Shown here piece by piece: positions 1-5,049 of a DNA stretch of 5,049 bases. A program made the position numbers and the translations under genes. Where the stretch lies: the NCBI GenBank assembly GCA_023140905.1, contig JAGLKS010000328.1:1-5049 (forward strand), in the 5' to 3' direction. The notes under the pieces were generated by a model, which saw only the letters and a list, made by a program, of their open reading frames with translations, searched no databases and was not told the DNA's origin. Every line of letters begins with the position of its first letter. The first letter of the stretch is position 1. This stretch comes from Alphaproteobacteria bacterium (lineage in GTDB: Bacteria; Pseudomonadota; Alphaproteobacteria; Micavibrionales; Micavibrionaceae).

Positions 1-307
1 TCTCTATGGGCAGATCTTTTTTGCCTATATCATGGGGGAGAACAGCCCTGTACATATTATTAGCAACATTGTTGCCAAGCTCCATGTATAAGCAGGTGTT
101 TTTAATACCTGTTGCAACGCGCATTGCATGTTCGTGAAAAATATAGGTAATATCATCTGGACGCAGTGCATCATAAGTCTTTAACTCTTCAAGCTGTTCT
201 TTTATAAAGGGTTTAAAGATATTCTGGCATGTCTCATCGGTTTTAAAATCGAAACCTTTGGGCCAGTCTTTATTATAGTCTGCCCGGTTTTTAAAATTCG
301 CGAACAT
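1..307 (-). CDS. HD-domain (HD-GYP-like) phosphohydrolase, 5' part only
   Basis: This gene starts at ATG 307-305 and stays open to the left edge, so 102 residues are visible and the C-terminus is missing. An in-frame TAA lies two codons upstream of the ATG, so no earlier start is possible; an AGGA (318-321) sits 10 bases upstream. The start overlaps the leuC 3' end by 17 bases, which suggests translational coupling. Residues 58-64 (HEHAMRV) and 90-100 ([11 protein letters not shown]) resemble the two metal-binding blocks of HD and HD-GYP domains, with His60 and the His92-Asp93 pair as likely ligands. HD proteins are metal-dependent phosphohydrolases, and HD-GYP members cleave cyclic di-GMP. 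The GYP block and the last Asp would lie outside the window, so the substrate is unknown. The first 45 residues are hydrophilic, with no signal peptide. The HD assignment is fairly firm; the subfamily is not. Confidence 0.8.
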
Positions 308-1694
308 CGGTTAGTTTTCCTGTAATAGCGGCTATTGCGGCCATGGCTGGTGAAAGTAAATGAGTGCGGCCTCCTCGACCTTGACGGCCTTCGAAGTTTC
401 TATTGGATGTGGATGCGCAACGATCACCGGGGTTAAGCTGGTCAGGGTTCATGCCCAAGCACATGGAACAACCGGCTTCGCGCCAGTCAAACCCTGCTTC
501 TTTAAGGATATCAGCAATGCCTTCTTGTTCAGCCAAAGCTTTGACAAGACCGGAGCCGGGGACTACCATAGCCTCAACACCATCAGCAACTTTTTTGCCT
601 TTAGCGATTTTTGCGACTTCTCGTAAGTCTTCGATACGGCCATTTGTGCAAGAGCCAATGAAAACGTTATCAATGGTGATATCTTGCATTTTTGTGCCTG
701 CTTCAAGTCCCATATATTCTAACATGCGTTTAACTTCTGCTTGTTTGCCCGGATCTTCAAAATCTTCGGGAGAGGGGACTTTGCCAGTGATAGGGACAAC
801 GTCTTCTGGTGTTGTTCCCCACGTTACAGATGGACATATGTCTTCTGCATCAAATTCAATTTCACGGTCAAAGTTTGCGTTTTCATCAGTGTATAGTGTT
901 TTCCAGTAGCTAACCGCTTTGTCCATGTCTTCACCTTTAGGGACCATAGGGCGGTCTTTGACATAAGTGAAGGTGGTTTGATCTGGAGCTATCAGGCCTG
1001 CGCGTGCCCCGGCTTCAATGGACATGTTACAAATCGTCATACGGCCTTCCATGGAAAGGTTCACAATAGCATCACCCGCATATTCTATGACATAGCCTGT
1101 ACCACCTGCTGTGCCAATATGTCCGATGATGTGAAGGATAACGTCTTTGGCTGTGACCCCTGCGCCAAGCTTACCGTTTACAGTAATGCGCATGTTTTTA
1201 GAAGGTTTTTGGATAAGCGTTTGTGTCGCCATAACATGTTCAACTTCGCTTGTGCCGATGCCAAAAGCCAGAGAACCAAATGCGCCATGTGTAGCTGTAT
1301 GACTGTCTCCGCAAACAATAGTCATGCCGGGCAGAGTGAAGCCTTGCTCTGGGCCGATAATATGGACAATGCCTTGACGTTTGTCGGTCAGGTCAAAAAG
1401 CTGAACACCGAATTCTTTACAATTATTGCGTAAAGTTTCAATCTGAATGCGGCTATCTTTTTCCTCAATAGGGAGGGTGCGATCTGTAGTAGGGACATTA
1501 TGATCCATTACAGCTAAGGTATTCTCTACGCGCCGTAATTTACGTCCAGCCATGCGCAAACCTTCAAAAGCCTGCGGTGATGTTACTTCGTGGACAAGGT
1601 GACGGTCTATATAAATCAAGCATGTGCCGTCATCGCCTGTTTGTTCAATAACGTGATCATCCCAGATTTTTTGGTATAAGGTGCGTGGGGTCAT
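291..1694 (-). CDS. leuC: 3-isopropylmalate dehydratase large subunit
   Basis: LeuC with the small subunit LeuD isomerises 2-isopropylmalate to 3-isopropylmalate in cytoplasmic leucine biosynthesis. The 467 residues match the usual family length (about 466), so the gene is complete. It belongs to the aconitase superfamily. The three [4Fe-4S] ligands are visible: Cys349 in GSCTNGR and Cys409 and Cys412 in AGCSMC. Other family blocks are [13 protein letters not shown] (128-140), the segment ending HVMATQ (153-158), and [10 protein letters not shown] (430-439), followed by [14 protein letters not shown]. The start is ATG 1694-1692 with AGG six bases upstream, and the N-terminus ([12 protein letters not shown]) fits the family. 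It follows rplS after 39 bases with no clear terminator between, so it may be read from the rplS transcript. The next gene downstream is an HD-domain gene, not leuD; the small subunit must be encoded elsewhere or further left. Confidence 0.97.
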
Positions 1695-2450: not shown

Positions 2451-3026
2451 TTAACCAAACATGGGCCCGCACGTTCTCTCTGGGTTACGAAGATTATCTA
2501 ATATAATATCATCTATCACTTTTCTCATTTCTTTATTTATGTAAAACGCTACAAACGTTAAACCTTTAGCCAAACGGGTATCATCTTTGATGTCATCATC
2601 CATGGCTTCGAGTATTTGCTCGTATAATTCTTTGTTTATTTCTCTTACAACCCCACAGTTGTTCAGGCCATGACCCATTTTCGAGAGACCATTTACCAAA
2701 TTTTCTTTGCTTATGTAGCCACTTTTGAGACCTGCCATTAAATCTCTTTGATCTATTATCCTTCTTTCTAACAAAATCTGAACCTTGTTGATGATTTTTT
2801 CATCAGACATATCTTTAATTATGTCCAGCATCCACGGAATTTCTTTTACATACTCTTTTGCAACAGCTCGCATACGATGTGCTATATCTATATATACGTT
2901 TGCACCATCTTGCATGCGAGACACATCTTTCTCATTTTCAGGAACACCACAGATTAATTGTACAATAGCACTGATGCCTTCCGTAGGAGGTTTCGAGGAG
3001 AAGAAGCACTTTGTATCATAGCTCAT
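2451..3026 (-). CDS. Hypothetical protein, probably all-helical, soluble
   Basis: I do not recognise this 191-residue protein. It is complete, starting at ATG 3026-3024 with AAGAG nine bases upstream, and ending at TAA 2453-2451. It has no signal peptide or membrane segment. The sequence is charged and rich in Ile, Leu, Lys and Asp/Glu, which suggests a bundle of helices after residue 40. Residues 91-103 (IDQRDLMAGLKSG) and 105-117 (ISKENLVNGLSKM) look like two copies of a 14-residue helical unit. Cysteines are at 7, 26, 124 and 186; no metal-site spacing is evident. It sits between trmD and rplS, which are usually adjacent, has a possible promoter of its own, and looks AT-richer than its neighbours. 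These points suggest a lineage-specific insertion, perhaps by transfer. The long open frame and a plausible ribosome-binding site support a real gene; the function is unknown. Confidence 0.75.
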   Translation of the reverse strand: MSYDTKCFFSSKPPTEGISAIVQLICGVPENEKDVSRMQDGANVYIDIAHRMRAVAKEYVKEIPWMLDIIKDMSDEKIINKVQILLERRIIDQRDLMAGLKSGYISKENLVNGLSKMGHGLNNCGVVREINKELYEQILEAMDDDIKDDTRLAKGLTFVAFYINKEMRKVIDDIILDNLRNPERTCGPMFG

Positions 3027-3866: not shown

Positions 3867-4553
3867 CTATTTTATATAGGGGATTAAATCCATAAAGTCA
3901 TCAATAACGATCATTGCGCCGTTTTCTTTTAGCATCTGTGCGCGTTTTGGTTCGTTTACCAGTCCTTCAATCGTAAATCCTATTGGTGTAACATTGGCGG
4001 CTTTGGATGCTATCATGTCGTTCATATTATCGCCGATATAGGCGCATTCATCAGGTTGGACATTCAAGAGTTTCATAGCTTCTATGATAATGTCAGGCTC
4101 AGGCTTGCGACGCATTGGCGGGTCACTTGTAACGACGGTGCTATAGATATCTGCTATTTCCATAATTGCCAGATCGTTTTCTAGTTTGTATAGTCGTTTG
4201 TTCGTGGACAGAGCGCAGTTCTCTTTTCCTATCTTGTCTATGAATTCACGTATGTTTTTGCCTAAATGTACTTTGTTTTCAGCGAATAACGTTTGGCGTT
4301 TTTTATTACGCTCAGCTGTGAATTCTTCTATATAAGGACGCATGTCGCAGCGCAGCATTTTTCCCACAGCTAGAAGTTTATCACGGCTTGCCATTCCTGC
4401 AAGTTTACGCATGTCTGAGGGGGGAAGTCTTTCAGATATATCAGCTTTTTCCAGAACTGTATTGATTTCGCCGCAGTCAAAGCTGGCAAAGATGGCTTCT
4501 GTATTGACTGTGACGCCATCAAAATCAAAAATAAATGCCGTGAATTTCTTCAT
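3867..4553 (-). CDS. HAD-superfamily hydrolase, phosphoglycolate phosphatase-like
   Basis: HAD hydrolases remove phosphate from small metabolites through an aspartyl-phosphate intermediate, using Mg2+. All four motifs are visible in this 228-residue protein: motif I DFDGV (10-14; nucleophile Asp10, acid/base Asp12), motif II LSTN (115-118; Ser116 or Thr117), motif III Lys150 in RRKPEPD, and motif IV GDNMND (174-179; Asp175 and Asp179). The segment between motifs I and II (about 15-90) is mostly helical, as in the C1 cap of the CbbY/Gph group. Length is usual for that group, and there is no signal peptide, so it should be cytoplasmic. Substrate cannot be read from the sequence; phosphoglycolate or another sugar phosphate is possible. 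It starts ten bases after the rimM stop and ends two bases before trmD, so it appears to be an operon member, although rimM and trmD are usually direct neighbours. The Shine-Dalgarno is weak, which fits coupling. Confidence 0.88.
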   Translation of the reverse strand: MKKFTAFIFDFDGVTVNTEAIFASFDCGEINTVLEKADISERLPPSDMRKLAGMASRDKLLAVGKMLRCDMRPYIEEFTAERNKKRQTLFAENKVHLGKNIREFIDKIGKENCALSTNKRLYKLENDLAIMEIADIYSTVVTSDPPMRRKPEPDIIIEAMKLLNVQPDECAYIGDNMNDMIASKAANVTPIGFTIEGLVNEPKRAQMLKENGAMIVIDDFMDLIPYIK

Positions 4554-4563
4554 GTTTTATGCT

Positions 4564-5049
4564 TTATTCCATGCGGAAAAGTTCTGTATTTCTGAGCATA
4601 ACAGATTTTTCTTCCAGATCAATATTTGTGACATAATCGTTGTGAAACGGGACATAGAAGGATTCTCCACCGTTGGCGGGTCTTATCTCTAATAAATCTC
4701 CGGCACCAAAGTTATTAACAGCTATGATTATGCCAAGAATATCGCTGTGACCGTGGGTTTTAGCGGTTAGCCCAACGAGATCCTCGATATAGAATGTGTC
4801 TTCTCCTTCAATATTCGGCAATGTTTCACGTGAAACAAACAGGGAACATTTGAGCTTTTTAGCGTCTTCCGGCGTAGTTATTCCTTCGATAGAAGCCAGT
4901 ATATATTTGCCCGTGGAGTTCTTTAGAGTGATAGTTAGGCTGGCATTATCAGCAGGGTTTTCACTCGTATAGAGTGGGCCTTTTAACAGAGAAAGGTCAT
5001 CACAATATGGAATGATTTTGACCAGCCCTTTAACACCGTGCGTAGAGGC
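4564..5049 (-). CDS. rimM: Ribosome maturation factor RimM, 5' end cut
   Basis: RimM binds the 30S subunit through ribosomal protein uS19 and assists late 16S rRNA processing and head assembly. The frame is open from the right edge to TAA 4566-4564, giving 161 residues; only about the first 10-15 residues should be missing. The N-terminal domain begins with THGVKGLVKI (visible residues 3-12), includes SIEGITTPEDAKKLK (53-67), and ends at LFVSRETLP (70-78). The PRC-barrel-like C-terminal domain follows with EDTFYIEDLVGL (83-94), NNFGAGDLLEI (112-122) and VPFHNDYV (133-140). A TTG at 4821 is in frame but is internal, since the conserved N-terminal domain lies upstream of it. Codons for visible residues 71-76 contain the exact parS palindrome (4822-4837), so this stretch may be under double selection. 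In related genomes rpsP usually lies just upstream, which would be beyond the right edge. Confidence 0.95.
   Translation of the reverse strand, partial: ASTHGVKGLVKIIPYCDDLSLLKGPLYTSENPADNASLTITLKNSTGKYILASIEGITTPEDAKKLKCSLFVSRETLPNIEGEDTFYIEDLVGLTAKTHGHSDILGIIIAVNNFGAGDLLEIRPANGGESFYVPFHNDYVTNIDLEEKSVMLRNTELFRME
4822..4837. other. parS: parS: ParB-binding centromere site inside rimM
   Basis: TGTTTCACGTGAAACA is a perfect 16-bp palindrome and an exact match to the canonical parS sequence bound by chromosomal ParB (Spo0J) proteins. ParB dimers nucleate here, spread along the DNA and work with ParA to move the origin region to daughter cells; they also load SMC. It lies within rimM, encoding the end of Phe71 plus Val-Ser-Arg-Glu-Thr (visible residues 72-76). 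parS sites inside genes are known in other bacteria. A 16-base exact match by chance in 5 kb is very unlikely, though the protein sequence fixes part of it. ParB binding here is inferred, not shown. Confidence 0.88.

What the first reader, a model, noticed from the sequence alone, without database searches (positions are those of the whole stretch)
4822..4837. Exact canonical parS palindrome embedded in the rimM coding sequence
TGTTTCACGTGAAACA is a perfect inverted repeat identical to the chromosomal parS consensus. It sits in codons of a conserved part of RimM, with synonymous choices (GTT TCA CGT GAA ACA) that complete the palindrome. Known parS sites cluster near the replication origin, so this suggests that the rimM-trmD-rplS-leuC locus is origin-proximal in this organism and that the RimM sequence here is held by both protein and DNA function.
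Basis: partly seen in the sequence, partly recalled or inferred. Interest (0 to 1): 0.8.

Follow-up and report, generated by a model that had tools for sequence, protein, structure and literature searches.

The report
Dispersed parS joined to SOS-box half
Inside a ribosome-maturation gene of an uncultured alphaproteobacterium sits a perfect copy of parS, the DNA mark for the chromosome-sorting protein ParB, joined to half of a sequence that resembles the binding site of the DNA-damage repressor LexA; relatives carry such joined copies far from where replication starts, and they would likely let ParB load there only when the DNA-damage alarm is on.

Summary
In detail: 4822-4837 is an exact 16-bp parS inside rimM. 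The DNA itself is conserved: seven genus members, the window's included, have an exact or near parS at the same codons, where codon identity peaks in the gene. The inferred origin-proximal location is not supported by relatives. In near-complete congener G009, rimM is at least 904 kb from parB; in carrier G002, at least 403 kb. The site belongs to a second class of parS. Class I copies cluster by parB. Class II copies carry GTTC at one fixed offset (RTGTTC-N6-TGTTYCACGTGAAACA) and are dispersed. In five genus members GTTC marks 27 of 29 far sites and 1 of 13 near sites; in 119 loci from across bacteria, 3 of 244 parS copies. The composite occurs in 23 of 142 genomes of the order and 16 of 385 of the class, with no control hits. 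In three lineages examined both classes use one palindrome variant, so ParB very likely reads both. The left 15 bp match a LexA (SOS) box in layout; one copy is the only such repeat before a recA gene. Proposed: LexA masks these ParB-loading sites until DNA damage. LexA binding is inferred; the window's own incomplete genome shows one class II copy and no such box at lexA.

The parts
4822..4837 (.). exact 16-bp parS palindrome TGTTTCACGTGAAACA
4844..4847 (-). one-sided GTTC half (plus-strand GAAC) at the fixed offset that marks class II sites
   Evidence: direct from sequence; 27 of 29 far sites in five genus members carry it
4822..4849 (-). class II composite ATGTTC-CCTGTT-TGTTTCACGTGAAACA
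   Evidence: pattern hit C255:4823-4847 minus
4833..4847 (-). SOS-box-like direct repeat GTTC-N7-GTTT that overlaps one parS arm
   Evidence: layout as in lexA, recA and Y-family polymerase promoters of the genus; LexA binding untested
4564..5049 (-). rimM (5' end cut by the window edge); element codons TGT TCC CTG TTT GTT TCA CGT GAA ACA = CSLFVSRET
291..1694 (-). leuC; in genus g30 (G040) a class II element lies about 59 bp before the leuC start, 6 kb from rimM, instead of in rimM

Best explanation
The rimM palindrome is one of a set of parS sites, scattered along the chromosomes of relatives, that share a GTTC half at a fixed offset, so that one arm of each parS overlaps an SOS-box-like repeat; ParB very likely binds them, and LexA likely covers them until DNA damage. 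Shown: the composite sequence; its dispersion in relatives; its near-restriction to sites outside the parB cluster; a common palindrome variant of cluster and dispersed sites in three lineages; codon-level conservation in rimM. Inferred: ParB loads at the palindrome as it does elsewhere; a LexA dimer on GTTC-N7-GTTY hides one parS arm, which avoids the fitness cost of parS away from the native cluster; LexA cleavage during SOS frees the sites; ParB then brings SMC and/or MipZ to the whole nucleoid, to hold the chromosome together or hold off division. The elements lie inside genes and between convergent genes as well as in promoter-sized gaps, so a promoter role is not needed.
For: (1) GTTC at offset 10 upstream of the palindrome: 27 of 29 far sites and 1 of 13 near-parB sites in G000, G001, G002, G005, G010; at each other offset from 4 to 39 the count is at most 1 (Fisher 1e-7). 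Outside control: 3 of 244 parS copies in 119 loci. (2) Composite pattern in 23 of 142 order genomes and 16 of 385 class genomes (G000 is in both); reversed control 0 in all. (3) Far from the origin: G001 sites map all round the G009 chromosome; in complete G353, 8 class I sites lie within 7 kb of parB and all 8 class II hits are at least 498 kb away. (4) Palindromes co-vary: G040 has GTTCCACGTGGAAC at the 4 cluster sites found in a 16-kb stretch and at all 11 dispersed hits; G353 has GTTTCACGTGAAAC at all 8 + 8; G400 has CGTTTCACGTGAAACG at 4 class I and 6 class II sites. (5) SOS-box likeness: GTTC-N7-GTTC at lexA in 7 of 10 genus loci and before recA and a Y-family polymerase in G009. A matrix made only from class II spacers ranks the polymerase and recA boxes 2nd and 4th of 34 in the fetched 82% of G009; lexA is 17th. 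The Caulobacter box GTTCttgttatGTTC (PMC12700426, passages) has the spacer of three class II sites in G001 and G010. (6) G040 carries a class II element about 100 bp before the recA frame, the only GTTY-N7-GTTY in that 6-kb locus. (7) In G002 the two cluster sites have T in both arms, but its 3 dispersed sites have C in the GTTC-proximal arm only, which makes exact GTTC-N7-GTTC. (8) MipZ is encoded in congener G009 (PF09140, 316.6 bits). (9) In Caulobacter extra parS lowers fitness at mid-arm, with a ~500 kb permissive region around the native cluster (PMC5815017, passages).
Against: No binding data. The second half is GTTT, not GTTC, in 41 of 67 order sites and 44 of 44 sites beyond the order; in G001 the lexA box keeps GTTC while its class II sites have GTTT. 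Three of 10 lexA loci, those of the window's own genome, G005 and G011, show no GTTC-N7-GTTY at all. Point 7 is also an exception to point 4: in G002, and in half of the G005 class II sites, cluster and dispersed palindromes differ. The proximal-C excess is 11 vs 2 in the order (p 0.02) but 11 vs 4 with the class (p 0.12), and the loci are not independent. The lexA boxes of the genus score poorly on the class II spacer matrix, the top-ranked G009 box has no clear SOS gene, and AT-rich promoters may inflate the ranks. In Caulobacter an extra parS near the terminus was tolerated (PMC5815017, passages), so ter-side sites would not need a mask. The window's own MAG shows one class II site only; its nearest relative by RimM (G011, 66%) shows none. 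Flank-less sites away from parB exist: G000 nadE, G005 C66; G011 C62 is unplaced. G131, G136 and G139 have 9, 7 and 5 exact parS copies but no class II hit.
Confidence: 0.4

Rival explanations
1. Class II is a ParB-only site: GTTC one helical turn upstream is an extra contact for ParB (a third, partial half-site) that tunes affinity, clamp loading or sliding at dispersed sites; LexA plays no part.
For: 11-bp spacing puts the repeats on one helix face. Palindromes co-vary with cluster parS in G040, G353 and G400. The second half is GTTT, which suits parS more than LexA, in 44 of 44 sites beyond the order. The own lexA locus has no such box. P. aeruginosa ParB binds half-sites GTTTCAC/GTTCCAC genome-wide (PMC10419367, passages).
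Against: Only GTTC, not GTTYCAC, is conserved upstream. GTTC-N7-GTTY with a Y/W-biased spacer is SOS-box layout. One copy sits in front of recA. G002 dispersed sites depart from its cluster parS by exactly the change that completes GTTC-N7-GTTC.
Confidence: 0.35
2. Ordinary origin-proximal parS: one more member of the parB-linked cluster, lodged in a gene near the origin.
For: Exact consensus. In G103 and G135 rimM is 251 and 207 kb from parB.
Against: rimM is at least 904 kb from parB in G009 and at least 403 kb in carrier G002. The GTTC flank is on 1 of 13 near-parB sites but on this one.
Confidence: 0.08
3. The dispersed elements are LexA operators only, and the parS likeness of the right arm is incidental.
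For: GTTC-N7-GTTC layout; recA promoter copy in G040.
Against: The 14-bp palindrome is intact and matches the cluster parS in three lineages. Lineages beyond the order have GTTT. Many elements are inside genes or between convergent genes. The seven lexA boxes found in the genus lack the palindrome.
Confidence: 0.06
4. Chance: the RimM motif V-P/S-R-E-T-L-P happens to be spelt as parS.
For: The peptide is natural for this genus: VSRET 14, VPRET 12 and VPREA 14 of the 120 homologues listed.
Against: Given the peptide the codons have probability 0.0019-0.0103 in each of five genomes. Codon identity peaks at the element. The GTTC flank is there too, and the same composite occurs elsewhere in the genomes of relatives.
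Confidence: 0.05

Closest known systems
Chromosomal parS (ParB/Spo0J centromere site)
   Same: Exact 16-bp palindrome; ParB gene in 136 of 143 genomes searched; cluster copies in mnmE, mnmG and rsmG near parB.
   Different: Class II copies carry GTTC at a fixed offset and lie far from the origin, down to the terminus side; the review PMC7022226 (passages) places the vast majority of parS in the origin 20%.
LexA (SOS) box of Alphaproteobacteria, GTTCN7GTTC
   Same: Direct repeat of GTTC 11 bp apart; similar spacer; one copy in front of recA.
   Different: Second half often GTTT and fused to a parS palindrome; found inside genes and between convergent genes.
Half-parS sites of Pseudomonas aeruginosa ParB
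   Same: ParB sites scattered over the genome (PMC10419367, passages).
   Different: Those are 7-bp half-sites in large numbers; these are full palindromes with an extra GTTC, at most 11 hits per genome.
Noc-binding sites (NBS) of Firmicutes
   Same: Dispersed palindromes related to parS (recalled).
   Different: NBS has another sequence and a ParB paralogue as reader (recalled). Here the palindrome is parS itself; G001, G005 and G010 show one ParB each at E 1e-8, though G002 and G006 show three matches each. Sites reach the terminus region in the G009 frame.

Membership tests
chromosomal parS | 16-bp palindrome TGTTTCACGTGAAACA or close variant | tested here: met
chromosomal parS | location in the origin-proximal region near parAB | tested here: not met
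   tested in relatives, not in the window's own fragmented MAG: at least 904 kb from parB in G009, at least 403 kb in G002
chromosomal parS | ParB in the same organism | tested here: inconclusive
   none in own MAG, 74.75% complete; 136 of 143 genomes searched have it
chromosomal parS | ParB binds and loads at the site | not testable with these tools
   indirect only: palindrome co-varies with cluster parS in G040, G353, G400
alphaproteobacterial LexA box | GTTC-N7-GTTC | tested here: not met
   window has GTTC-N7-GTTT, one base off; exact in the G040, G066 and G002 class II hits
alphaproteobacterial LexA box | position in an SOS-gene promoter | tested here: not met
   window copy is inside rimM; one of 11 G040 copies is in front of recA
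alphaproteobacterial LexA box | LexA binding | not testable with these tools
   LexA gene found in 10 of 10 genus genomes searched, the window's included
Noc-binding site | a Noc-type ParB paralogue as reader | tested here: inconclusive
   one ParB match each in G001, G005, G010 at E 1e-8, but three each in G002 and G006; none in the own MAG

The most novel reading that the evidence does not exclude
Alphaproteobacteria carry a network of SOS-gated centromere sites: parS palindromes fused to LexA boxes all along the chromosome, closed by LexA in healthy cells and opened on DNA damage, so that ParB turns the whole nucleoid into a ParB/SMC/MipZ platform that holds the chromosome together and blocks division, a Noc-like checkpoint without Noc.
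Probability: 0.28. Interest if true: 0.92.

Novelty: new variant of a known kind. Interest (0 to 1): 0.74.

Why it matters
parS is the textbook origin-linked bacterial centromere, and extra copies can be harmful in model species. A conserved, recognisable second class of parS placed away from the origin and built over an SOS-box-like repeat would mean that ParB has a programmed chromosome-wide role, and it offers a direct, testable link between DNA damage and chromosome segregation or division.

Tried and rejected
Polarity: element orientation against ori-ter, as for KOPS. In the G009 frame 18 mapped sites run ter-to-ori and 5 ori-to-ter (G001 8 vs 2, G010 4 vs 2, G005 3 vs 0, G002 2 vs 1, G000 1 vs 0, recount), but many are the same locus in several genomes, and in complete G353 it is 4 of 8 (my count, parB taken as origin). 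Not claimed.

Neighbourhood conservation between genera: 3 of 8 mappable G040 elements lie within 6 kb of a genus g1 element (p about 0.02), but it fails at 12 and 26 kb. Three of the 11 G040 elements (C1:288209, C1:1268373, C8:31699) were dropped as unmappable. Suggestive only.

Mobile repeat: rejected, because flanks beyond the element differ between sites; five G353 copies do share one spacer.

Because of the limit, and because near relatives may be left out there, this is weak.

ParB in the own genome: two models, none found.

A G009 box first taken to precede an S24-type regulator was not borne out by Pfam and is not used as an SOS gene.

Literature: searches are search listings. One search gave nothing, and none of the titles and abstract openings listed in the others describes LexA-parS composites or GTTC-flanked dispersed parS. 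No bioRxiv preprints and few subscription papers are held, so this is not proof of absence.

Full report
The observation. The 16-mer at 4822-4837 is an exact parS and is the only match in the window within 3 mismatches. It lies in rimM on the minus strand. The gene order on the minus strand is rimM, a HAD-type hydrolase, trmD, an ORF of 191 aa without family, rplS, leuC. The own genome is a 1.75-Mb MAG in 381 contigs, 74.75% complete. With up to 2 mismatches it holds four sites: rimM (exact), mnmE (exact), a frame on the mnmE contig (2 mismatches) and nadE (1 mismatch); the reversed control gives none. ParB was not found in this MAG, but 136 of the 143 genomes searched have it.

Is rimM held by DNA? 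Crossing parS positions with RimM positions and a motif scan of 104 family genomes gives rimM-embedded sites at the same codons in seven of the twelve genus members: exact in G000, G001, G010; one mismatch in G002, G005; two mismatches in G003, G006. G004 and G011 have the motif but no parS. G009 has rimM without the motif, G008 has only a rimM fragment and G007 no rimM match. The motif scan hit 9 of 104 genomes, all of this genus; two of its 11 hits (in G001) are not rimM. In a codon alignment of eight genomes (the six carriers in it used for the count, G006 not in it) codon identity at identical residues is 93 of 118 in the nine element codons and 626 of 1330 elsewhere, and the three best 9-codon windows of 145 start at the element's first column or one or two columns before it. 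Given the peptide, the parS codons have probability 0.0019 to 0.0103 in five genomes. Shared ancestry contributes, but codon identity in the rest of the gene is only 47%.

Is the locus near the origin? No, as far as relatives tell. G009 has two contigs (1376629 and 1052325 bp); about 82% of it was fetched. parB is at C2:497019 and rimM at C1:968470; however the contigs join, they are at least 904 kb apart of a possible 1214 kb. GC skew turns at about C2:480 kb (origin) and C1:620-720 kb (terminus), which puts rimM 888 kb from the origin on an arm of about 1156 kb if the contigs join as the skew suggests. The window's genes map to the same block (-883 to -888 kb). In carrier G002, contig arithmetic alone puts rimM at least 403 kb from parB. 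In G033 and G062 the distance is about 1.0 Mb of about 2.5 Mb; in G103 and G135 it is 251 and 207 kb.

Two classes of parS. G001 has 15 sites within 1 mismatch on eight contigs; even the tightest contig arrangement spreads them over 777 kb of 1.7 Mb. Mapped on G009 they lie in the origin cluster and at +27 (hisD), -437 (ileS), -556, +617, +846, -888 (rimM), -914, -1065 (sufD), -1141 (ybgC) and +1195 kb (gene names); one more lies about 7 kb from parB on the parB contig. Aligning flanks showed that the dispersed copies, and not the cluster copies, carry RTGTTC six bases upstream on one side. Counts for G000, G001, G002, G005, G010 (sites within 1 mismatch): far 27 of 29, near parB 1 of 13; other offsets at most 1. 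Near and far were set by the parB contig or by synteny to G009. One site cut by a contig end (G005 C161) was dropped; the hisD site of G001, on its own contig but +27 kb in the G009 frame, is counted as far. The two far sites without the flank are G000 nadE and G005 C66. T precedes GTTC in 25 of 27. Among 244 parS copies in 119 loci drawn from across bacteria, 3 have the flank.

Spread. The composite GTTC-N7-GTTYCAYRTGRAAC occurs in 23 of 142 genomes of the order and 16 of 385 of the class (G000 is in both), with no reversed-control hit in either. G040 has 11 hits and G353 has 8; class II counts in these genomes come from the composite pattern alone, so flank-less far copies there were not scanned. 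In the stretch fetched around parB, G040 has 4 class I sites and G353 has 8. In G400 one class II site lies about 4 kb from parB among 4 class I sites and five lie farther. In these three lineages both classes use the same palindrome variant: that is the main argument that ParB reads both. G002, and half of the G005 class II sites, depart from it by one base in the arm next to GTTC. In G040 one class II element is about 59 bp before leuC and 6 kb from rimM, in the same neighbourhood as the window's rimM-leuC block.

What the flank looks like. GTTC-N7-GTTC is the Caulobacter LexA box (PMC12700426, passages only). In this genus it stands at lexA in 7 of 10 loci; the loci of the window's own genome, G005 and G011 show none. 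In G009 it also stands before recA and a Y-family polymerase. The class II spacer is about H-Y-N-W-W-W-T in the order; a matrix made from it ranks the polymerase and recA boxes 2nd and 4th of 34 GTTC-N7-GTTC in G009, but lexA 17th, and the first-ranked one has no clear SOS gene. G040 has a class II element about 100 bp before the recA frame and no other GTTY-N7-GTTY in that 6-kb locus. In G002, the cluster sites have T in both arms and the three dispersed sites have C in the arm next to GTTC. Against this, the second half is GTTT in 41 of 67 order sites and in all 44 sites beyond the order, and G001 keeps GTTC at lexA but GTTT in class II.

Mechanism. Shown by sequence: two parS classes, dispersion, shared palindrome variants, SOS-box-like overlap, codon-level constraint. 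Inferred: ParB binding, LexA masking, SOS release, SMC or MipZ recruitment. MipZ is encoded in G009 (PF09140). A mask is plausible because extra parS lowers fitness at mid-arm in Caulobacter, though there an extra copy near the terminus was tolerated (PMC5815017, passages). Scattered ParB binding as such has a precedent in half-parS of P. aeruginosa (PMC10419367, passages), and the general rule that parS lies in the origin 20% is stated in PMC7022226 (passages). On recount I lowered the LexA reading from 0.42 to 0.40 and the novel case from 0.30 to 0.28 and raised the ParB-only rival from 0.33 to 0.35, because the own lexA locus shows no box and G002 and G005 break the co-variation; I also lowered the LexA-operator-only rival from 0.07 to 0.06.

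Limits. The window's own MAG has a single class II hit, so a network in this very species is not shown. MAG contigs may be misbinned. The class II definition was made after seeing the data in the genus; the order and class scans and the 244-copy control are later tests.

Noticed in passing
G136, G139, G131: Class-level relatives with 7, 5 and 9 exact parS copies; in G136 seven copies lie on six contigs, none of them the parB contig, and none of the three has a class II hit. A second, flank-free kind of dispersal may exist.
   Followed up: partly
window 2451-3026 minus: A 191-aa ORF between trmD and rplS has no Pfam or NCBIfam match at E 0.001.
   Followed up: no
window 3867-4553 minus: A HAD-type hydrolase sits between rimM and trmD, inside the usual rimM-trmD pair.
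   Followed up: no
G434 C2:143361 and 143395; C3:112868 and 112879: Doubled class II elements: two copies 34 bp apart, and one palindrome with GTTC on both sides.
   Followed up: no
L054:3598-4017 minus (G001) and G010 C208:5671 in L072: A parS-like element overlaps the predicted start codon of ybgC, the tol-pal thioesterase (protein begins MFHVKH or MFHMKH), 4 bp from the next ORF in G001.
   Followed up: no
G001 C9:953-1129 and C6:3361-3537: Two extra 76-aa frames match the LexA DNA-binding domain in G001.
   Followed up: no
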